Assembly (NCBI GenBank): GCA_947589435.1
Contig: CANQBI010000018.1
Span: forward strand, 1 to 32,486
DNA from: an uncultured Bacilli bacterium
Lineage (GTDB): Bacteria; Bacillota_I; Bacilli_A; RF39; UBA660
DNA length: 32,486 bases
Direction: 5' to 3'
The stretch's first letter is position 1. Every line of letters starts with the position of its first letter. The notes under the pieces were generated by a model. The model was not told the origin of the DNA, searched no databases, and saw only the letters and a program-made list of their open reading frames with translations. The translations under genes were made by a program, and so were the position numbers. Shown in pieces: positions 3,092 through 21,213 of the stretch.

Positions 3092-3853
3092 ATGGAAGAG
3101 AATTTTAAAAATAAATTTGGCTTTTTCGCTTTTGTCTTAATTGTTATAGGGCTTGCTGTTGGAGGTTATTTCTATATGGATTATACCATTAAAGATGTAA
3201 AGACAGGAAGTAAAAAAGAAGAAAAAGTCATAACTGATTATAAAATTGATAAAGATAAAGATTTTATCTATTATAAAGATGAAGAAACAATTAGTGAAGA
3301 AGGGGAAATTTATTATAAGAATGTGGTTATTAATTTAAGTACCCAAGAAGTTTTAAATGAACTTTTAGAAAAAGAAAATAAAATATATAAAGATAATATT
3401 AAATATCGAAGTGATGTAAGTATTCCTACCGAAGAAATAGTTAATTATGATTATGATAATTTATATTCTTTAACTTTTAGAGAATATAAAGATTATACTT
3501 ATAATAATTATGTTAGTTTACTGGTTAATGATTTTTCTTTCTCTTGTTTTGATGATATAACATTTAAAGATACTAAAGCTTATGTCTTTGATACGAAAAC
3601 AGGAAAAAGTTTAACGGAAGAAGAAATTTTAAGTATTTATAGTTTAAGTATGGATGATGTTAAAAATAAGATGCGAGAGTATTTAACCGGTAAACAATCC
3701 ACTGTGGATGGGACAGAAGTTATTAAAATAGATGAGACAGTTAATAATTTAGATAATTATAGTATTTATATTAATGAATTTGGTCATTTATACATTACAT
3801 ATCTTGTCAAAACGACGCAAGTAGATTATAATGAGAATATGGAGGTTAAATAA
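3092..3853 (+). CDS. Membrane-anchored extracellular protein, hypothetical (possibly RsiV/DUF3298-like)
   Basis: Single N-terminal TM then hydrophilic domain; SD GGTGA upstream. Confidence 0.5.
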   Translation: MEENFKNKFGFFAFVLIVIGLAVGGYFYMDYTIKDVKTGSKKEEKVITDYKIDKDKDFIYYKDEETISEEGEIYYKNVVINLSTQEVLNELLEKENKIYKDNIKYRSDVSIPTEEIVNYDYDNLYSLTFREYKDYTYNNYVSLLVNDFSFSCFDDITFKDTKAYVFDTKTGKSLTEEEILSIYSLSMDDVKNKMREYLTGKQSTVDGTEVIKIDETVNNLDNYSIYINEFGHLYITYLVKTTQVDYNENMEVK

Positions 3854-4386
3854 TGGATTTAAATACCGAAGTGAAAATGCAAAAAGCCATTGAGGCTTTA
3901 GATACTAAAATGACCAGTATTAGGGCCGGAAGGGCCAATCCTTCAATGCTTAATGGTTTAATGGTCGAATACTATGGCAGTATGACTCCGATTAATAGTA
4001 TTGCGAATATTACCGTTCCCGAAGCTAAACAATTATTTATTAAACCATTTGATAGAAGTGCTCTTAAAAATATTGAGAAAGCGATTAATGAATCTAATTT
4101 AGGAATTGCTCCCAATAATAATGGGGAAATGATTATTTTAACTATTCCAGAACTTACGGAAGATAGAAGAAGAGAATATGTTAAAATGGCTAAGTCATTA
4201 GGAGAAGAAGCTAAAATTGCTTTAAGAAATATAAGACAAGAAGATAATGATAAGATTAAAAAGGAAGAACTTCCGGAAGATGAAGAAAAATTATATTTAG
4301 AAGATGTTCAAGAATTAATTAATAAATATAATAAAATAGTTGATGAAAAAGTTAAAGAAAAAGAAGAAGAATTAATGAAGATATAA
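3853..4386 (+). CDS. frr: Ribosome recycling factor
   Basis: SIRAGRANPSMLNGLMVEYYGSMTPINSIANITVPEAKQLFIKPFD.. LTEDRRREYVKMAK. Confidence 0.97.
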   Translation: MDLNTEVKMQKAIEALDTKMTSIRAGRANPSMLNGLMVEYYGSMTPINSIANITVPEAKQLFIKPFDRSALKNIEKAINESNLGIAPNNNGEMIILTIPELTEDRRREYVKMAKSLGEEAKIALRNIRQEDNDKIKKEELPEDEEKLYLEDVQELINKYNKIVDEKVKEKEEELMKI

Positions 4387-4404
4387 AAAAGGGTTGATGA
4401 AAAA

Positions 4405-4881
4405 ATGAATAAAAAGGATGAAGTGAAAGTAAAGGATAAGAAGTTTCATTTAGCATTAATAGTGTCGTGTTATTTAATGTTAGATGTTATAGTCTTGTTT
4501 ATTCTTTGTTTATTAGAAGTGTTTTTCAAAGTAAATCATGATATACTTTTAATTGCTAGTATGATTATTGAAGTATTTATGATGATGATTGTACTTTATA
4601 AAGGAAATATTAGGTCAGCAATTATATTTTATATATTGCTCTTAGTATCTCCAGCCTTCTTAGTAGTGCTTGCTAATTGTATGCACTTTATAACGGATGC
4701 TGACCCATTTACCCCAATAGTATTATTGTTATTTAGAACTGGTTATAATTTAAAAGGGGTACTACTTGGTAAATTTATAAGAATGATATTATTCTTTAGA
4801 ATACCAGCATTAATTACTTTACTTATTTATTCATTAAACTACTATATTAAATATTTAACTAGAAAGAGAAAGGCTGCTTAA
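4405..4881 (+). CDS. Multi-pass membrane protein, hypothetical
   Basis: Hydrophobic ORF; terminator-like AAAGGCTGCTTAAAGCCTTTTTATTTT at the 3' end. Confidence 0.6.
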   Translation: MNKKDEVKVKDKKFHLALIVSCYLMLDVIVLFILCLLEVFFKVNHDILLIASMIIEVFMMMIVLYKGNIRSAIIFYILLLVSPAFLVVLANCMHFITDADPFTPIVLLLFRTGYNLKGVLLGKFIRMILFFRIPALITLLIYSLNYYIKYLTRKRKAA

Positions 4882-4942
4882 AGCCTTTTTATTTTGAGAA
4901 TAATATTAATATATATTTTACAAAGTATATGTAAAATTTTCG

Positions 4943-5020
4943 TTAGTTTATTGTTCCAATAAACTAAATATTATATAATATTTAGTTTATTGTTCCAATA
5001 AACTAAATATTATATAATAT
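4943..5020 (+). repeat. Two perfect 39-bp direct repeats, each with two palindromes, in the promoter region of the next gene
   Basis: TTAGTTTATTGTTCCAATAAACTAAATATTATATAATAT x2; each contains TTTAGTTTATTG-TTC-CAATAAACTAAA (12-bp arms in copy 2, 11 in copy 1) and ATATTATATAATAT. Confidence 0.9.
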
Positions 5021-5045
5021 TTGTAGAAAAGGTAGGGAAATACAA

Positions 5046-5795
5046 ATGAATGAAAATAATAACAATGAATTTGAAAATGAAAATGAAGTAAAACAAGAAC
5101 CAAATAATAAACCAAATTTTGATGATTTTAGTTATGGTAAAAATGCTAAGAAAGCTTTAATACCAATGTTTGTAGGCTTATTTACAATGGTGTTACTTAC
5201 GGTAGGAGCAACATGGGCATATTATAATGTAACAATTTCAGGCAGTGCATCTTCTACATCAGTAGGTACTACAATGGGTGCACAAAATGTTGTTACAATA
5301 TCTGGCGGAAAGGGAACTTTGGCACTTAATTTGAGTGCAGAGAATATGTCACAAACTACTGCTGGTAGTAGTGGTAAAGTTTGGTATGCCTCTGCAAATG
5401 GTACTCCTAGTGATGCTAAATATGAAGCAAATGTAGCTACTGCTACGTTAACAACAGGTCAATCTGCTACTTGTACATATACATTAAAGATTACTAACAC
5501 AAATAAAACTTTATATACAGCATATCAAACATTACAAAATAAAGCACTTGGTGAGATTGTATTAACAGTTGATGGCGTTGACTATGATTTATCTAAAGCA
5601 GATACAGATCTTTCTGCAATATTTGGCAATGGTTTAACTATAACAAATAAATCTATTACTTTAAATAGTGGTACAAATAAAACGAAAAATATTATGGCAA
5701 GTTTTAAATTTACAAATACCGCAAAGGACCAATCCTCACTTGCAGGTAAGGGTATGGCTCTTACGGTATCAACGGAGGCATGGAATTGTAAATAA
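5046..5795 (+). CDS. Secreted TasA/camelysin-like surface protein (SipW-type signal)
   Basis: AKKALIPMFVGLFTMVLLTVGATWAYYNVTISGSASST..: positive N-region, hydrophobic core, GATWAYY; Ser/Thr/Asn-rich mature region. Confidence 0.6.
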   Translation: MNENNNNEFENENEVKQEPNNKPNFDDFSYGKNAKKALIPMFVGLFTMVLLTVGATWAYYNVTISGSASSTSVGTTMGAQNVVTISGGKGTLALNLSAENMSQTTAGSSGKVWYASANGTPSDAKYEANVATATLTTGQSATCTYTLKITNTNKTLYTAYQTLQNKALGEIVLTVDGVDYDLSKADTDLSAIFGNGLTITNKSITLNSGTNKTKNIMASFKFTNTAKDQSSLAGKGMALTVSTEAWNCK

Positions 5796-5936
5796 TCAAA
5801 ATAAGCAGGGATAATCAAATTATTCCTGTTTAAACAAATAACGTTTATTTTTAAAAATATTTTAAAAATATATGTTGTACATATCGTATAAAATAATTTA
5901 TAATATAGATATATAGTATAGAAAGTTGGTATATTT

Positions 5937-6614
5937 ATGAATAATAATGATAGAATAGGTGATGCAAAAAAAGCATTAGTTCCTGCGCTTGTTGCTGTTA
6001 TTGTATTAATTGGTTTAGTAGTAGGAGCAACATGGGCTTATTTTACAGTTAAAGTTGATAATAAAGTGACTCAAACAACTGCATCAGCAAATACTCCAGA
6101 AATTCCGTTAGTAACGTTAAATGGAGGAGTAAGTAAATTATCTATGAGTTTAACAGCAGATGATATGGCAAGTGCAAACCAAAAAACTTATTATGCTGGT
6201 GAAAATGGTAAGGTTGAATCTCAAATTGCTCCTACTATTGCGACGGTTACATTAGATAAAGATAAGATAAATACTTATACTTGCAGTTATACAATTACCG
6301 CAAAGGTTTCAGCAGAAAATGAGTCATTAATTAGTGCATATACTTCTAAATCAGCAACTAATACTGGAGAACTTATTTTAAAATTAAATAATCAATCTTA
6401 CGATTTAGCTAATACTTCCCATAATACTGCGATATTAAGTGATTCAGGTTTATCTTATAGTGGTACTATCGAGGTTAAACCTAGTGTACCAACTAATTTA
6501 ACAGCACAACTTAGTTTAGCTAATAATAATAAAGATCAATCATTTCTTGCCAACACTTCAGCAATAATTAATATAAGTGCAAAGATAACAACTTGTAATC
6601 TAAAAACATCTTAG
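5937..6614 (+). CDS. Paralogous TasA/camelysin-like surface protein
   Basis: AKKALVPALVAVIVLIGLVVGATWAYFTVKVDNKVTQTTAS.. matches the preceding ORF at the N-terminus and in late motifs (DQSFLA vs DQSSLA). Confidence 0.6.
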   Translation: MNNNDRIGDAKKALVPALVAVIVLIGLVVGATWAYFTVKVDNKVTQTTASANTPEIPLVTLNGGVSKLSMSLTADDMASANQKTYYAGENGKVESQIAPTIATVTLDKDKINTYTCSYTITAKVSAENESLISAYTSKSATNTGELILKLNNQSYDLANTSHNTAILSDSGLSYSGTIEVKPSVPTNLTAQLSLANNNKDQSFLANTSAIINISAKITTCNLKTS

Positions 6615-6623
6615 TAAAATATA

Positions 6624-6652
6624 TTGACAATTTCTTAATTTCTATGTATATT
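6624..6652 (+). promoter_or_regulatory. Sigma-A-type promoter for abi leader RNA
   Basis: TTGACA (6624-6629), 17-nt spacer, TATATT (6647-6652). Confidence 0.6.
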
Positions 6653-6657
6653 AGTAT

Positions 6658-6733
6658 ATAGAAAAGGACAAGAGGTTAGAAAGAATAATTAATTGAAGAC
6701 ATGGGATAGGTTGTATATCTTATGTCTTTTTCT
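6658..6733 (+). ncRNA. Leader ncRNA upstream of abi gene, ending in a terminator hairpin; candidate abiF-type RNA
   Basis: AAGACATGGGATA-GGTTGTA-TATCTTATGTCTT (13-bp stem with G:U pairs, 6696-6728) then T-rich tract, located between promoter and the SD of the Abi gene. Confidence 0.55.
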
Positions 6734-6750
6734 TTTAGGAGGAATTCATT

Positions 6751-7608
6751 ATAAAAGAAGCTAAAACTAATGAAGAATTAATTAATCACTTAATAACCAA
6801 AGGTGTCAAAGTTAAAAATAAGAAGAAAGCTCTTAAACTATTAGAGAGATATTCTTATTATGCCATTGTAAATACTTATAAAGATGTTTTTAAAGTAAAA
6901 GGGAAATATATTAATGGGGTTACTTTTGAAGAAATATATGCTTTATATGAGTTTGATAAAAATATTAAAGCAATATTTTTAAAATATACTTTAGAGATAG
7001 AATTAATTATTAAAGCTTTATTGGCCAATACGATATCAGAAAAGTATGGAGTAAAGGATTATTTAAAAACAAGTAATTTTGATTCTAAGGCAGATTTAGA
7101 AGAAATTAAAAAGTTAAGAAATAAAATTAATAAAGCAATTAAAAATAATTATGGTAAACACGAAGCAATTACTCATTATAAAGATAAATATGGATTTATT
7201 CCTCCTTTTGTTTTAGTAAAAGTATTAACTTTTGGGGAAATAAGTAAATACTATGGTTTATTAAAACAAAGTGATAGACAAAAGATAAGTAAGTATTTTA
7301 AGTTGTCGGATAAAGAGTTGAGGCAAATGCTTTTGAATATTACTCTTGTGCGCAATTTATGTGCCCACAGTAATAGACTTTATACGTATAGAAGTAGATT
7401 CTTTGTGAATGTGGATAAGCCAAATAGAAATTATCGAGAGTATATAAAATCAACTGATTTATATATGATTACTAAATGTATGGAAATATTATTAGATGCT
7501 AAAAGTTATAATAAATTATTAAAAGATTTTGAAAAAGAAATTAAGAAACTTAGTAAAAAATTAAAATGTATAGATATAAATAAAATTTTAAATATGATGG
7601 GATTTTAA
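6751..7608 (+). CDS. Abi_2/AbiD-AbiF family abortive-infection protein (HEPN), apparent AUA (6751) or AUU (6748) start
   Basis: Frame is open from the stop at 6736: (M)KEAKTNEELINHLITKGVKVKNKKKALKLLERYSYYAIVNTYKDVFK...; HEPN RxxxxH motif RNLCAH; AGGAGG SD at 6737-6742; no ATG/GTG/TTG in frame until 7021. Confidence 0.75.
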   Translation: MKEAKTNEELINHLITKGVKVKNKKKALKLLERYSYYAIVNTYKDVFKVKGKYINGVTFEEIYALYEFDKNIKAIFLKYTLEIELIIKALLANTISEKYGVKDYLKTSNFDSKADLEEIKKLRNKINKAIKNNYGKHEAITHYKDKYGFIPPFVLVKVLTFGEISKYYGLLKQSDRQKISKYFKLSDKELRQMLLNITLVRNLCAHSNRLYTYRSRFFVNVDKPNRNYREYIKSTDLYMITKCMEILLDAKSYNKLLKDFEKEIKKLSKKLKCIDINKILNMMGF

Positions 7609-7692
7609 GTAAATAATAATTATTTTTTTGCATATAATATTAATGAAATTAATAAAAATGTTCAATTTTATTAAAAAATGTTACAAAAATGA

Positions 7693-7720
7693 TTGACATT
7701 TTCAATAAATTGGGTATAAT
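7693..7720 (+). promoter_or_regulatory. Promoter of sRNA A1
   Basis: TTGACA-16 nt-TATAAT. Confidence 0.75.
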
Positions 7721-7726
7721 TAAATT

Positions 7727-7799
7727 AATTGGTACTTAGGAAACTTTCGAAGCCTTAAGTCGTCGAATACTTGGCACTTCGGTGCTGGGTATTTTTTTT
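7727..7799 (+). ncRNA. sRNA A1 (tandem paralogous sRNA)
   Basis: Consensus promoter; ACTTAGG-AAACTTTCGAAG-CCTTAAGT stem; terminator ATACTTGGCAC-TTCG-GTGCTGGGTAT + T8. Confidence 0.7.
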
Positions 7800-7830
7800 A
7801 TAAAAAATTTCACAAATGTATCAAATGTGC

Positions 7831-7858
7831 TTGACACATATTATAAAATGAGTATAAT
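7831..7858 (+). promoter_or_regulatory. Promoter of sRNA A2
   Basis: TTGACA-16 nt-TATAAT. Confidence 0.75.
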
Positions 7859-7864
7859 TATAAA

Positions 7865-7940
7865 TGAGCAGTACTTAGGAAACTTTCGAAGCCTTAAGTC
7901 GACCGGGTTACTGGCACTTCGGTGCTGGGCTCTTTTTTTT
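7865..7940 (+). ncRNA. sRNA A2 (tandem paralogous sRNA)
   Basis: Shares GTACTTAGGAAACTTTCGAAGCCTTAAGTCG (31 nt) and TGGCACTTCGGTGCTGGG (18 nt) exactly with A1; T8 tail. Confidence 0.7.
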
Positions 7941-8019
7941 AATATTTATTTTACAATTTAATGTACTTTAAGATAGTTTAAATAAGTTATTTATGATATA
8001 TTATTTATAGGTGGTAGTA

Positions 8020-8679
8020 ATGGTTTTAGTAATAATTATTATACTTATATGTTTATTTTTAATATTTATAATGTTTAAATCATATAAAGAAAATGAATTT
8101 AATATGTTTGGTTATAATTTGGGTAAATATTTACTTAGACCTATTTTTAAGTTATATTACCCTTATAAAGTTATTAATAAATTAAAAGTACCAGAGAATG
8201 GTCCGGTTATCTTTTGTTGTAATCATATTCATTTTATGGACCAATTCTTAACGGTTATAGAATCAAAAAGACCTATTCATTATTTAGCGAAAAATGAATA
8301 TTTTTTAAGTAAGAAAACTAAATGGTTTTTTGCGGGAACTGGTTGTATTCCGGTTAATCGGAGTATTCATGATGAAAATGCTAAAGATAAGGCTAGAGAA
8401 GTTTTAGATAAAGGATTATGTTTAGGAATATTCCCAGAAGGAACTAGAAATAAAACGAAAAAAATATTATTGCCTTTTAAATTTGGGGCCGTATCTTTAG
8501 CGAAAGAAAAGAATGCATATATAATTCCTATCGGAATTACAGGTCATTATAAGTTTAGAACAAAAGATTTAAGAGTAAACTATGGAGAGGCTTATAAAAT
8601 AGAAAGTGATGACTTAGAAAAAGAAAATAAAAAGTTAGAAGATAAAGTTTTAAGTTTAATAAAAGAGGCGAAGAAATGA
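8020..8679 (+). CDS. 1-acyl-sn-glycerol-3-phosphate acyltransferase (PlsC-like)
   Basis: NHIHFMDQ and FPEGTRNK motifs; ATG at 8020 preceded by GGTGG. Confidence 0.88.
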   Translation: MVLVIIIILICLFLIFIMFKSYKENEFNMFGYNLGKYLLRPIFKLYYPYKVINKLKVPENGPVIFCCNHIHFMDQFLTVIESKRPIHYLAKNEYFLSKKTKWFFAGTGCIPVNRSIHDENAKDKAREVLDKGLCLGIFPEGTRNKTKKILLPFKFGAVSLAKEKNAYIIPIGITGHYKFRTKDLRVNYGEAYKIESDDLEKENKKLEDKVLSLIKEAKK

Positions 8680-10058
8680 ATATTTATTTAAAAGATTTAG
8701 TAAGAGTATCGGAGGGTATTTTAATTAAAGGAGATAATGCTACTTTAATTAATTCTTTTTCGATTGATACGAGAACTTTAAAAAAGGGGGAAGTTTATTT
8801 AGGTATTAAGGGTAGTATAGTAGATGGTAATACTTTTTATAAAGAGGCCATTACAAAGGGTGCTAGTGGGTGTATTTTAGATAAAAATACAGATGTTGAT
8901 AGGGAATTTTTAAAAGATAAAGATGTTTTTATCTTACTTGTGGATGATGTAATTTTATCTTTACAACAAATTGCTACTTATAAAAGAAGTAGGTTAAATA
9001 TTCCAGTTGTGGCTATCACAGGTAGTGTGGGTAAAACGAGCACTAAAGATATGGTAGCAAGTGTTTTAAGTACCAAATATAAAGTTTTAAAAACCGAAGG
9101 AAACTTAAATAATCATTTAGGACTTCCTTTAACGATTATGAAATATTTAGATGAAGATATTATGGTTTTAGAAATGGGAATGAATAACTTAGGAGAGATA
9201 AGAGTTCTATCCAATATTGCGAAACCCACTTTAAGTGTTATTACGAATATTGGAACCTCACATATTGGTAATTTAGGATCAAGAGAAAATATTTTAAAAG
9301 CTAAACTAGAAATCCTAGAGGGTATGGATGAAAAAGTTTTAGTTATTAATAATGATAATGATTTGTTACATAACTTAAAGATAGATGGGAAAATTATTAC
9401 TTATGGAATTAATAATAAAAGTGATTATAATGCCTATGATATTAAATATAATTTAGATAATTTAACTTATAAAATTAATTTATTAGATTGTACCGAAGAA
9501 ATTAAAATAAATGTACCAACAGAAAGTTTTGTGTTAAATAGTTTAGGTGCTTTAAGTGTGGGAATGTATTATGATATAGAGATAGATAAAATAAAAGAAG
9601 GATTAGAGACCTTTAAATTATCAAGTAATAGAATGGAAATAGAAAAGATAAATAATATAACATTTATTAAAGATTATTATAATGCGAGTGTAGATTCTAT
9701 TAATAGTACTCTTAGTTATTTAAGTAATTTAAAGGGAAGAAAGATAGCCGTTTTAGGGGATATGTTAGAATTAGGAAAGTACTCTAAAAGTTTACACGAA
9801 ATGGTTGGTAAGAGTGTATATGAAAAAGGAATAGACATTTTAATTACGGTAGGTAATGATGCTAAGTATATTGCGGATGAAGCTTTAAAATTAGGCTTTA
9901 ATAAAAATAATATTTTTACATATATTCATAATAGAGAAGCTTCTTTAAAACTATTATCAATATTAGAGAGTGGTGATATAGTTTTACTTAAAGCTTCTCA
10001 TGGAATGAATTTTAAAGAGATTTATTCCTTAGTAAAGGATGGTTTAAAAAATATTTGA
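8676..10058 (+). CDS. murF: UDP-N-acetylmuramoyl-tripeptide--D-alanyl-D-alanine ligase
   Basis: SIDTRTLKKGEVYLGIKG, VAITGSVGKTSTKDM, LEMGMNNLGEI, DYYNASVDSINSTL, AVLGDMLELG. Confidence 0.95.
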   Translation: MNIYLKDLVRVSEGILIKGDNATLINSFSIDTRTLKKGEVYLGIKGSIVDGNTFYKEAITKGASGCILDKNTDVDREFLKDKDVFILLVDDVILSLQQIATYKRSRLNIPVVAITGSVGKTSTKDMVASVLSTKYKVLKTEGNLNNHLGLPLTIMKYLDEDIMVLEMGMNNLGEIRVLSNIAKPTLSVITNIGTSHIGNLGSRENILKAKLEILEGMDEKVLVINNDNDLLHNLKIDGKIITYGINNKSDYNAYDIKYNLDNLTYKINLLDCTEEIKINVPTESFVLNSLGALSVGMYYDIEIDKIKEGLETFKLSSNRMEIEKINNITFIKDYYNASVDSINSTLSYLSNLKGRKIAVLGDMLELGKYSKSLHEMVGKSVYEKGIDILITVGNDAKYIADEALKLGFNKNNIFTYIHNREASLKLLSILESGDIVLLKASHGMNFKEIYSLVKDGLKNI

Positions 10059-16159: not shown

Positions 16160-16371
16160 CAAAAAAACAGTTATCAATAAATGATAACCGTCATAAATGT
16201 CCTACTTAAAGGACCAATGTCCGACAATGAACTTAACAAGTCCTTGTCCCCTTTAATGTCCTACTTAAAGGACCAATGTCTGACAACGAACCTAAAAGGC
16301 CCTTGTCTTCAAAAATTGTCCTACTTAAAGGACCCATGTCTGACAACGAACTTAACAAGCCCTTGTCTTCT
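16160..16371 (-). ncRNA. ncRNA B2: tandem-repeat RNA with own promoter and terminator
   Basis: Minus strand: TTGACT-17-TACAAT promoter (16406-16378), three about 60-nt units, terminator CGGTTATCA-TTTAT-TGATAACTG-T7 (16190-16161). Confidence 0.7.
16198..16370 (-). repeat. 3 tandem units (periods 59 and 60 nt) inside ncRNA B2, each forming two hairpins
   Basis: Minus-strand consensus GACAAGGGCTTGTTAAGTTCGTTGTCRGACATTGGTCCTTTAAGTAGGACA. Confidence 0.9.
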
Positions 16372-16377
16372 AATAGC

Positions 16378-16406
16378 ATTGTATCATATCACACACATTA
16401 AGTCAA
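16378..16406 (-). promoter_or_regulatory. Promoter of ncRNA B2
   Basis: TTGACT (16406-16401), 17 nt, TACAAT (16383-16378). Confidence 0.65.
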
Positions 16407-16556: not shown

Positions 16557-17075
16557 TTATTTTTGATATGTGAACATTTTTATTAAATTGTCATCAATTT
16601 TATTTAAAACAGATTTATCACAAATACATTTATTTTGGTTTAATGGTATTCTGTTTTTACTTATTGTTTTTATTTGCGATAGATTTGCATAAGAGTCTAA
16701 TTTGCAATTTGATGGAGTAGGATATACATTGTTTAATAATTTACCTAATAGTAATCTATTTTTTCCTTTTTTTGAAGTGAGAGGAATTACTGTAATGCAA
16801 TCTGAGTAAATACTATCATTTTTTGTAATAACAATTGCATAGTGTATAAAACTTAATTCTGCTCCAATGTTTATTCCAAAATCAACTTTAATTAGTTGTC
16901 CTCTCATATATTTTTTATAAGTTACTTTATTTGATTTAGTTTCTTTTAAAAATAAATTACTTTCTTTTTCTAACCAATTATCTAAGGTATTAAATTTTTC
17001 AATACCACTTTTATTTACTTTTTTAAAATTTTCACAAGCCAAATCAATCTTACTTGTTTCAGTATTAATATTCAT
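16557..17075 (-). CDS. PemK/MazF-like family protein with N-terminal extension
   Basis: YMRGQLIKVDFGINIGAELSFIHYAIVITKNDSIYSDCITVIPLTSKKGKNR.. matches the PemK/MazF core pattern; AGAAGGA SD. Confidence 0.75.
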   Translation of the reverse strand: MNINTETSKIDLACENFKKVNKSGIEKFNTLDNWLEKESNLFLKETKSNKVTYKKYMRGQLIKVDFGINIGAELSFIHYAIVITKNDSIYSDCITVIPLTSKKGKNRLLLGKLLNNVYPTPSNCKLDSYANLSQIKTISKNRIPLNQNKCICDKSVLNKIDDNLIKMFTYQK

Positions 17076-19837: not shown

Positions 19838-19962
19838 TTAGGTATGGCCTCAACAACAGCAATTATTGGGCGTGGTATGTGAATTCGGATGGCTCCTTGG
19901 GCTGGAATAATTACAATGTGAACAATACGCTTGCGGTTCGCCTTAAGCCTTCTATAACTTGA
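19838..19962 (+). repeat. Non-coding partial copy of the 3' end of the upstream gene; DGR template-repeat-like
   Basis: Conceptual translation VRYGLNNSNYWAWYVNSDGSLGWNNYNVNNTLAVRLKPSIT*; shares GCGTGGTATGTGA and CGGTTCGCC with 19587-19720; AAY-rich. Confidence 0.55.
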
Positions 19963-20038
19963 ATGAATATATGGCTATGGCTATATACTAGGGAAGATAG
20001 AAGACAAAGATTATCTAAGACTTTTAGTCTAAATTAAA

Positions 20039-20090: not shown

Positions 20091-20233
20091 TTGCAATATA
20101 TTTACATTTGTCATTTACTTATTAATTTACATAATTTTTTCTTGAAAAATGTCAAATTTTACGCATAAAAAAATTTTTTAAAGAAATTTGCCTCTAAAAA
20201 AAGGAAATTCGATATTTTTTTACAATATTAATA

Positions 20234-20824
20234 GTGAAGGGAGAGAAAAGTCAAAACTTAAAAATTATGCAAACAAAAGAAAAATTAAAAAGTTATACCA
20301 ACATAAAAGAAGCCATTGAAGATTATGTTAAAGAAATTAAAAATAATTTTAAACCATGTGTTGTAATTAGAACTCACAAAAAGGAAGATTATACTAATGA
20401 ATTACAAACGACAATTTATAATAAAGCTAAGGAGGAATTTAAAAAGATTGGTAAAAACATCTTTTTAAATAATGGTGAAGAAATCTATGTATCTAACAGT
20501 GATATTAAAGAAAGCGTTGCTAAGATTGTTAGAAGTGATTATCAAAAGCAATTACTAACAGAACATTTAGAATTGTTTTCTAAATTAGATAAGATAATTG
20601 AAAATGGTAAATTGGTAACTAGTGCTTGTGAAACAAAGAATAGATGGCAAAATCAAAAATGGGATTATTATATAACTCCAATAAAAATTAATGGTCAAAA
20701 ATATATTGTGGAATTTGATACGGCAATTAAGTCTGAGGATAATAAAAAACATTTTCGCATTCAAAGAATATTTAAATTACAAGACATAAAAAAACAAACT
20801 GTTCCGACCGGTATGGTTGAGTAA
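20234..20824 (+). CDS. Hypothetical protein, possibly phage-type nuclease-fold domain (start uncertain: GTG 20234 or downstream ATG)
   Basis: ORF 196 aa; C-terminal WDYYITPIKINGQKYIVEFDTAIKSEDNKKHFRIQRI; weak family recognition. Confidence 0.5.
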   Translation: MKGEKSQNLKIMQTKEKLKSYTNIKEAIEDYVKEIKNNFKPCVVIRTHKKEDYTNELQTTIYNKAKEEFKKIGKNIFLNNGEEIYVSNSDIKESVAKIVRSDYQKQLLTEHLELFSKLDKIIENGKLVTSACETKNRWQNQKWDYYITPIKINGQKYIVEFDTAIKSEDNKKHFRIQRIFKLQDIKKQTVPTGMVE

Positions 20825-20863
20825 TCAACTATTAGACCGGTTTTAGGAACAATTTGTTTTCTA
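20788..20863 (-). ncRNA. sRNA C3 of a three-copy tandem family
   Basis: Promoter TTGACA (20898-20893)-17-TATTAT (20875-20870); AUAGAAAACAAAUUGUUCCUAAAACCGGUCUAAUAGUUGAUUACUCAACCAUACCGGUCGGAACAGUUUGU7. Confidence 0.7.
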
Positions 20864-20915
20864 TAAATAATAATACCATAAATGATACGTATTGTCAACA
20901 AGAAAATTGACTTGC

Positions 20916-20985
20916 AAAAAAACAGGTTGCTGCGACCGTTCTTCTGAATAAATCAGCGAGTCGGTTTGCAAAACAACCTGTTTCT
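20916..20985 (-). ncRNA. sRNA C2 of a three-copy tandem family
   Basis: Promoter TTGATA (21020-21015)-17-TACAAT (20997-20992); AGAAACAGGUUGUUUUGCAAACCGACUCGCUGAUUUAUUCAGAAGAACGGUCGCAGCAACCUGU7. Confidence 0.7.
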
Positions 20986-21023
20986 ATATCAATTGTATCA
21001 TAAAAGAAGTGCTATATCAATAT

Positions 21024-21096
21024 AAAAAACGGAGCACTTCGACCGGCAGGGTTGTATAACAACTCGATCTCCGGTTTTTGAAATGCTTCGTTTCTA
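21024..21096 (-). ncRNA. sRNA C1 of a three-copy tandem family
   Basis: Promoter TTGACA (21131-21126)-17-TATTGT (21108-21103); AGAAACGAAGCAUUUCAAAAACCGGAGAUCGAGUUGUUAUACAACCCUGCCGGUCGAAGUGCUCCGU6. Confidence 0.7.
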
Positions 21097-21213
21097 CAAA
21101 TAACAATATCATAAAAGATACGTATTGTCAACATAAATAAAACGAGTAAATTATTTTTAAGTTTTTTAAAAATTTTATAGTCTTTTTAAAAGTAATAAGG
21201 TATAATAAAAACT

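What the first reader, a model, noticed from the sequence alone, without database searches (positions are those of the whole stretch)
20788..21131. Three tandem, individually promoted paralogous sRNA genes (family C) on the minus strand
Each copy has a sigma-A-like promoter with an exact 17-nt spacer (TTGACA/TATTGT, TTGATA/TACAAT, TTGACA/TATTAT). Each then encodes a 70-76 nt RNA with the order UAGAAAc - outer stem - AAACCG(G) - variable hairpin - (C)CGGUCG - outer stem - U6-7. The outer stems (e.g. AACAGGUUG/CAACCUGUU vs UUGUUCC/GGAACAG) and the apical hairpins (CUGA/UCAG vs GUUGA/UCAAC vs GAGUUGU/ACAACCC) differ in sequence but keep pairing. The ACCG..CGGU core and its flanks are kept. Covariation between tandem copies indicates selection for structure. 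I cannot match it to a family I know.
Basis: partly seen in the sequence, partly recalled or inferred. Interest (0 to 1): 0.85.

Follow-up and report, generated by a model that had tools for sequence, protein, structure and literature searches.

The report
Hairpin RNAs paired with toxin-like domains
Three tiny hairpin RNA genes sit back-to-front at the end of a gene for a phage-derived, RNA-cutting-enzyme-like domain (LPD3), and across related bacteria and their phages nearly every copy of this domain carries such an RNA gene on its opposite strand, so the RNA is probably the domain's built-in antidote.

Summary
On the minus strand at 20788-21131 lie three ~72-75 nt RNA genes, each with a near-consensus extended -10 promoter (17-nt spacer), one long hairpin and a U-run. 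22 related RNAs show strong covariation (57 double-sided changes against 18.8 in shuffles). Rfam has no match.

The RNAs converge on the 3' end of a gene for LPD3, a phage polyvalent-protein domain of unknown function whose predicted fold weakly resembles RelE/CdiA-type (BECR) RNases. At most LPD3 domains found in the order, and in phage contigs, the same promoter-hairpin-U-run cassette lies antisense just after the domain (32 of 38 LPD3 and PBECR3 loci; 1 of 38 on the sense strand; 5 of 760 shuffles). In >1000-codon polyvalent genes it lies inside the coding linker. PBECR3, a predicted BECR RNase, has its own distinct RNA. RNA type follows domain clade in solo and polyvalent contexts. RNAs also survive without LPD3 at several loci, whereas no LPD3 of the window's clade lacks its RNA.

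Best reading: an RNA antidote (type III-like) encoded behind each RNase-like domain. The pairing is shown. Inhibition, RNase activity and expression are inferred.

The parts
21103..21131 (-). extended -10 sigma-A type promoter of RNA copy 1 (TTGACA-17-TATTGT)
21024..21096 (-). RNA copy 1: hairpin AAACGAAGCAUUUC...GAAGUGCUCCGUUU with ACCGG/CCGGU core, ends in U6
20992..21020 (-). extended -10 promoter of RNA copy 2 (TTGATA-17-TACAAT)
20916..20987 (-). RNA copy 2: hairpin AAACAGGUUGUUUU...GCAGCAACCUGUUU with ACCG/CGGU core, ends in U7
20870..20898 (-). extended -10 promoter of RNA copy 3 (TTGACA-17-TATTAT)
20788..20862 (-). RNA copy 3: hairpin AAACAAAUUGUUCC...GGAACAGUUUGUUU with ACCGG/CCGGU core, ends in U7; overlaps the last codons of the LPD3 gene on the other strand
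20267..20824 (+). LPD3 (PF18798) gene, 185 aa from ATG 20267 (an upstream GTG at 20234 is possible); predicted fold weakly resembles RelE/CdiA-CT BECR RNases; proposed target of the RNAs
20140..20266 (+). leader/promoter region of the LPD3 gene; contains AAAGGAAATTCGATATTTTTTTACAATA (20200-20227), a motif found 13 times in the genome upstream of accessory genes

Best explanation
The cluster is the RNA half of a two-component module. The protein half is the LPD3 domain, probably a BECR-fold (RelE/colicin/CdiA-like) ribonuclease that phages carry inside large polyvalent proteins and that bacteria also carry as a solo gene. The RNA half is a short hairpin, probably strongly transcribed, whose gene lies on the opposite strand immediately behind the domain. 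I propose that the hairpin RNA binds the LPD3 protein and blocks it (type III-like antidote or immunity RNA). It would act in trans, with recognition through the invariant 4x1 internal loop and the ACCG/CGGU helix, and three tandem copies would raise the dose. Because the RNA gene sits in the domain's own 3' DNA, domain and antidote move together when phage polyvalent genes are reshuffled or the domain is captured by the host. Shown: promoter sequences, covarying structure, domain-specific pairing, co-diversification, orphan RNAs. Inferred: RNase activity, toxicity, direct inhibition, expression.
For: Pairing: 32 of 38 LPD3/PBECR3 loci have the antisense cassette in the 380 nt after the domain, against 1/38 sense, 3/37 and 1/37 upstream, and 5/760 shuffles. 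In a stricter scan of 294 kb, both strands, 21 of 22 cassettes are these and the other is a promoted hairpin RNA upstream of an Abi-family gene (the stretches were chosen for LPD3/PBECR3 or nearby genes). All 35 cassettes that the scan called have a 17-nt spacer and 30 have the TG. Viral contigs: the LPD3/PBECR3 loci recovered (L014, L119, L120, L122-L124; L123 and L124 are identical over this stretch) all carry it inside the coding linker. Structure: 57 double-sided changes against 18.8 shuffled. Co-diversification: Mantel r = 0.46, p = 0.0002; solo and polyvalent domains of one clade share one RNA type. PBECR3 has its own conserved RNA core. Asymmetry: RNAs persist without LPD3 or beside decayed LPD3, another RNA type has an orphan copy in L072, and every LPD3 of the window's clade that was found has an RNA. 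Fold: the top structural neighbours of models of two separate LPD3 clades include CdiA-CT, RelE and BrnT RNase toxins.
Against: No expression, toxicity or binding data. BECR-fold matches are weak (Z up to 4.9), Foldseek gives no significant hit, and there is no sequence relative in the PDB. LPD3 was described as a domain of unknown function, not an RNase (PMC5512222). Three solo LPD3 loci of a divergent clade (L018, L021, L022) and the divergent PBECR3-like clade (L054-L064) lack the RNA. Cis-antisense pairing is unavoidable where the RNA overlaps the mRNA, so a type I-like mode is not excluded. The best orphan site is shared by two genomes that are about 95% identical there, so its conservation does not itself prove selection.
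Confidence: 0.55

Rival explanations
1. Cis-antisense (type I-like) control: the RNA pairs with the 3' part of the LPD3 mRNA and triggers its decay or interferes with convergent transcription, as RatA and similar 3'-overlapping antisense RNAs of Firmicutes do.
For: In all cassettes called the RNA gene is antisense and convergent to the domain's gene, and it overlaps it in polyvalent genes. Convergent 3'-overlapping antitoxin RNAs are known in Bacillota (own knowledge).
Against: In the second copy of this genome (C22) the three RNAs' hairpins lie beyond the LPD3 stop codon. Window copies 1 and 2 lie 200 and 92 nt past the stop. Orphan RNAs exist without any LPD3 gene. What is invariant is the internal loop and ACCG/CGGU helix, while stems change with compensation, which antisense pairing does not need. 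RNA type follows the protein clade in both contexts.
Confidence: 0.2
2. The RNA is a cofactor, guide or substrate of LPD3 rather than its inhibitor: a ribonucleoprotein effector.
For: Domain-specific RNA folds and co-diversification fit any RNA-protein complex, including a positive one.
Against: Orphan RNAs without the protein occur, but no window-clade LPD3 without RNA was found, the direction expected of an antidote. Separate near-consensus promoters would make RNA in excess.
Confidence: 0.12
3. The hairpins are only terminators or insulators of convergent transcription, and the promoters are incidental.
For: The 14-bp stem plus U-run is a good intrinsic terminator, and copy 3 is hairpin-forming on both strands.
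Against: Every called cassette has a near-consensus promoter at a fixed 17-nt spacing just before the hairpin. Inside polyvalent ORFs a terminator is not needed. The conserved internal loop and helix are not terminator features. Tandem and orphan copies have their own promoters.
Confidence: 0.06
4. The hairpin DNA is a recombination or mobility element (attC-, REP- or palindromic-insertion-like) that helps shuffle domains.
For: Polyvalent proteins are mosaic (PMC5512222) and the element lies at a domain border.
Against: The sequence is different for each domain clade, so it is not a shared recombination site. Promoters are kept in orphan intergenic copies.
Confidence: 0.03

Closest known systems
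Type III toxin-antitoxin systems (ToxIN, CptIN, TenpIN, AvcID; AbiF/RCd22)
   Same: A structured small RNA is genetically paired with a (predicted) ribonuclease-like protein, and RNA units can be tandem; AbiF's RNA acts in trans on the protein (PMC12373285).
   Different: Type III: RNA upstream of the toxin, one promoter, bicistronic operon, terminator between, repeats processed (PMC5086642). Here: RNA downstream, opposite strand, own promoter per RNA, own terminator, single-hairpin transcript, often inside the coding sequence of the protein; protein fold BECR-like if anything, not MazF-like or HEPN.
Type I toxin-antitoxin systems with 3'-convergent antisense RNA (e.g. txpA/RatA)
   Same: Convergent RNA gene overlapping the 3' end of the toxin gene in Firmicutes.
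   Different: LPD3 is a 180-aa globular domain or part of a >1000-aa protein, not a small hydrophobic peptide; the RNA is constrained as a structure and occurs where there is no target mRNA.
DUF3800-associated RNA motifs (Weinberg et al. 2017, own knowledge; one is discussed in PMC7657543)
   Same: Small structured RNAs recurrently next to one protein family of unknown function. This genome has DUF3800 genes with convergent promoted RNAs in the same layout and behind the same leader (L004, L114).
   Different: Different protein family, different RNA fold, no Rfam match.
Polymorphic toxin / CDI toxin-immunity pairs
   Same: Each exchangeable toxin domain is followed by its cognate immunity gene (own knowledge); the LPD3 model's top structural match is a CdiA-CT toxin.
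   Different: The immunity factor would be an RNA and lies on the opposite strand within the linker.

Membership tests
LPD3 (PF18798) | Pfam gathering score | tested here: met
   Window protein 40.1 bits, cut-off 27, E = 4.8e-10
BECR-fold ribonuclease | BECR fold (N-terminal helix followed by 4-5 strands) | tested here: inconclusive
   AlphaFold2 model pLDDT 85.5. Best structural matches CdiA-CT 6cp9 Z 4.9 (rmsd 3.4, 94 aligned) and RelE 1wmi Z 4.3 (3.6, 79 aligned). A second LPD3 clade: BrnT 3u97 Z 3.9 (3.6, 76) and 6cp9 Z 3.9 (4.0, 97). Consistent but below Z 5.
BECR-fold ribonuclease | RNase activity | not testable with these tools
   needs a biochemical assay
Type III toxin-antitoxin | RNA upstream of the toxin in one bicistronic operon with a terminator between | tested here: not met
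   RNA is convergent, downstream, with its own promoter; definition from PMC5086642
Type III toxin-antitoxin | Tandem RNA repeats | tested here: inconclusive
   Arrays of 2-4 separately promoted copies in several solo loci, one two-unit array without an evident second promoter (L007), single copies elsewhere
Type III toxin-antitoxin | RNA neutralises the protein directly | not testable with these tools
   needs binding and growth assays
Type I toxin-antitoxin | Small hydrophobic toxin peptide | tested here: not met
   185-aa predicted globular domain, or domain of polyvalent proteins
Type I toxin-antitoxin | RNA complementary to the toxin mRNA | tested here: inconclusive
   True in cis inside polyvalent genes; hairpins lie beyond the stop in C22 and some RNAs have no LPD3 gene nearby
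Any Rfam 15 family, including DUF3800 RNA motifs | Covariance-model score above gathering cut-off | tested here: not met
   No match in the cluster nor in 17 related loci

The most novel reading that the evidence does not exclude
Phage polyvalent proteins encode, on the antisense strand of the linker behind each RNase-like domain, a dedicated antidote RNA gene: a coding principle in which a multidomain effector carries one RNA immunity gene per toxin domain inside its own coding sequence, and host genomes keep orphan copies as protection against such effectors.
Probability: 0.45. Interest if true: 0.95.

Novelty: new variant of a known kind. Interest (0 to 1): 0.86.

Why it matters
If true, a class of phage effector domains of unknown function gains an activity (RNase toxin) and a cognate regulator that can be tested at once. 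It would show RNA antidotes outside the type I and type III arrangements, encoded antisense within the toxin's own gene so that recombination rarely separates the two. It would also give a computational handle: an extended -10 promoter plus hairpin plus U-run antisense after a domain may flag further toxin-like domains in polyvalent proteins.

Tried and rejected
Rfam at gathering score and at permissive E-values: nothing above chance. A pattern scan of viral contigs gave two chance matches in GC-rich phages (L012, L013). My first genome pattern had a wrong spacing and found nothing, not even the window; it is not evidence. GenBank phages: no protein relative of three LPD3/PBECR3 queries. Foldseek: no significant hit. 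PADLOC and PHROGs: no informative match for LPD3. attC/REP-like DNA element, plain terminator and antisense-only readings were considered and ranked as rivals. One related-loci run failed because of a frame error. The weak hits L049, L061 and L062 were not counted as true relatives. I did not score linkers in polyvalent genes that lack LPD3/PBECR3.

Full report
Observation. The minus strand of 20788-21131 holds three RNA genes in tandem. Each has a sigma-A type promoter with a 17-nt spacer and a TG before the -10, a ~72-75 nt transcript that folds into one long hairpin (z -4.4 to -7.1), and a run of 6-7 U. The hairpin has a 14-bp outer stem AAAC...GUUU, an asymmetric internal loop (four nucleotides 5', usually ending AA, and a single C 3'), an invariant ACCG/CGGU helix and a variable apical hairpin. 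Rfam has no match.

Second copy in the genome and the partner gene. The same genome carries another cluster of three such RNAs on contig C22 (L002). In both places the RNAs run convergently into the 3' end of a homologous gene (83% identical proteins). Pfam identifies the protein as LPD3, 'large polyvalent protein-associated domain 3' (40.1 bits, cut-off 27). LPD3 comes from the polyvalent proteins of phages and conjugative elements, where its function was left open; that paper does not contain the word antisense (PMC5512222).

LPD3 loci elsewhere. LPD3 matches were found in 26 of 385 genomes of the order, and only rarely elsewhere in the phylum. Behind most of the domains, on the opposite strand, stands the same kind of cassette: TTGACA-17-TGnTATAAT, a hairpin of about 50-110 nt and a U-run. 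The sequences differ widely between clades. A scoring script finds the cassette in 32 of 38 LPD3/PBECR3 loci in the 380 nt after the domain, in 1 of 38 on the sense strand, in 3 of 37 and 1 of 37 in the upstream region, and in 5 of 760 dinucleotide shuffles. The cut-offs were set after the first loci had been read by eye, so the shuffles and the other strand are the relevant controls. All 35 cassettes called in an enlarged set have a spacer of exactly 17 although 16-18 were allowed, and 30 have the TG. In 294 kb of fetched sequence, chosen mostly around LPD3/PBECR3, a stricter scan gives 22 cassettes: 21 are these and one is an RNA upstream of an Abi-family gene.

Inside phage genes. In several genomes the LPD3 is a domain of an open frame of 1000-2760 codons. 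There the cassette lies inside the coding linker behind the domain, antisense. The same holds for the viral contigs recovered: L014 (two LPD3-like domains, both by eye, one also by the scan), L119, L122, L123/L124 (LPD3; the last two are identical in this stretch) and L120 (PBECR3). The domain PBECR3 (PF18812, a predicted BECR ribonuclease) has its own RNA with a conserved CGUUUCGGACGU element, in solo genes (L007, L052, by eye L053) and in polyvalent genes (L050, L051, L072). A 2599-aa polyvalent frame (L072) has an LPD3-type RNA behind its LPD3 and a PBECR3-type RNA behind a PBECR3-like domain, the latter recognised by eye. Other linkers of the scanned polyvalent genes gave no comparably strong cassette, apart from the leftover-like RNA in L073.

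Selection on structure and specificity. For the window's RNA clade 22 RNAs were aligned. 95.4% of pair cells are standard, 14 of 24 pairs show double-sided changes, 57 cells against 18.8 +/- 3.5 in shuffles. Adding two pairs below the apical hairpin raises this to 70 cells, with one pair alternating 9 G-C to 9 U-A. The inner ACCG/CGGU helix and the last A of the internal loop do not vary (one exception in one pair), as expected of a protein-binding core. RNA similarity follows LPD3 similarity (Mantel r 0.46, p 0.0002), and pairs such as L037/L047, L036/L030 and L046/L029 show that a solo-type gene and a polyvalent domain of one clade share one RNA type.

RNAs without the protein. A covariance model (R1) found the clade in 12 of 385 genomes. 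At G419:C6 (two copies), G419:C38, G203:C8, G341:C5 and G197:C45 no LPD3 coding sequence is detected in the 3 kb examined. At G270 and G272 the RNA stands beside a decayed LPD3. G419:C38 and G203:C8 are the same site in two closely related genomes, with the outer stem unchanged and the apical hairpin swapped between two variants that both pair. An orphan of another RNA type lies outside the polyvalent gene in L072. Conversely no LPD3 of the window's clade was found without its RNA. This asymmetry is what an antidote predicts.

The protein. An AlphaFold2 model from 17 own-locus sequences has pLDDT 85.5. Structural neighbours are led by CdiA-CT and RelE/HigB toxins at Z 3-5. A model of a divergent LPD3 clade gives BrnT, the same CdiA-CT and RelE-like toxins. 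The scores are low, so the BECR assignment is a lead, strengthened by agreement between two models and by the analogous pairing of the predicted BECR RNase PBECR3 with its own RNA.

Mechanism. I infer that the hairpin RNA is made in excess, binds the LPD3 domain and blocks it, protecting a cell that carries a prophage or a solo LPD3 gene; a phage injecting the protein without the RNA would expose a naive cell. The arrangement resembles polymorphic toxins, where each exchangeable toxin is followed by its immunity gene, but with an RNA on the opposite strand. It is not a type III system by gene order (PMC5086642), though it may work like one; AbiF/RCd22 shows that such RNAs can act in trans on the protein (PMC12373285). 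Rivals (cis-antisense repression, RNA as cofactor, terminator only, DNA element) are listed with their evidence.

Limits. No transcript, toxicity or binding has been measured. The genomes are fragmentary assemblies, and sampling is centred on one bacterial family and its phages. Three divergent LPD3 loci and a divergent PBECR3-like clade have no such RNA, so the rule is clade-specific, not universal. The literature library is partial, so novelty is judged against Rfam 15 and the papers held.

Noticed in passing
L077 (G110:C40) 489-1395, same as L008: A ~905-bp piece of a phage polyvalent gene (LPD3 plus its antisense RNA) lies exactly between two repeats of a type II CRISPR array (repeat GTTTTAATACCATTTAAGATGACATAGATCTAAAAC; Cas9-, Cas1-, Cas2- and Csn2-like frames at 3354-9304), near one end with degenerate repeats: it looks like a giant 'spacer'.
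   Followed up: partly
window 20200-20227 and 12 other sites in G000: A leader AAAGGAAAT..TTTTTTACAATA occurs 13 times in the genome (0 in the reversed control) upstream of LPD3, DUF3800, PDDEXK/Rpn-like, MazF-like, DUF1016-like and transporter genes: a shared, non-sigma-A-looking promoter of accessory genes.
   Followed up: partly
window 6660-6733 (+) and 7021-7608 (+): Promoted hairpin RNA upstream of an abortive-infection (phrog_2158) gene on the same strand: looks like an AbiF-type RNA-protein pair.
   Followed up: partly
window 16191-16406 (-) and 16557-17075 (-): A PemK/MazF-like gene followed on the same strand by a strong promoter and three 59-nt tandem repeats that could be a repeat-RNA antitoxin, in reversed order to a normal type III locus.
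   Followed up: no
L004 / L114 (G000:C6) and L115 (G000:C7): DUF3800 genes behind the shared leader; on C6 they are followed by convergent promoted RNAs with a different fold and no Rfam match: same layout with a third protein family.
   Followed up: partly
window ~19850-19970 and L004 1785-1905: Near-repeat fragments encoding ...NNYWAWYVNSDGSLGWNNYNVNNTLAVRLKPSI-like peptides, resembling variable or template repeats of a diversity-generating element, without a reverse transcriptase seen nearby.
   Followed up: no
L073 7415-7474 (+): A second antisense RNA, of the type that follows an LPD3-like domain in L080, lies directly behind a PBECR3 RNA with no domain of its own between them: perhaps a leftover of domain loss.
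   Followed up: no
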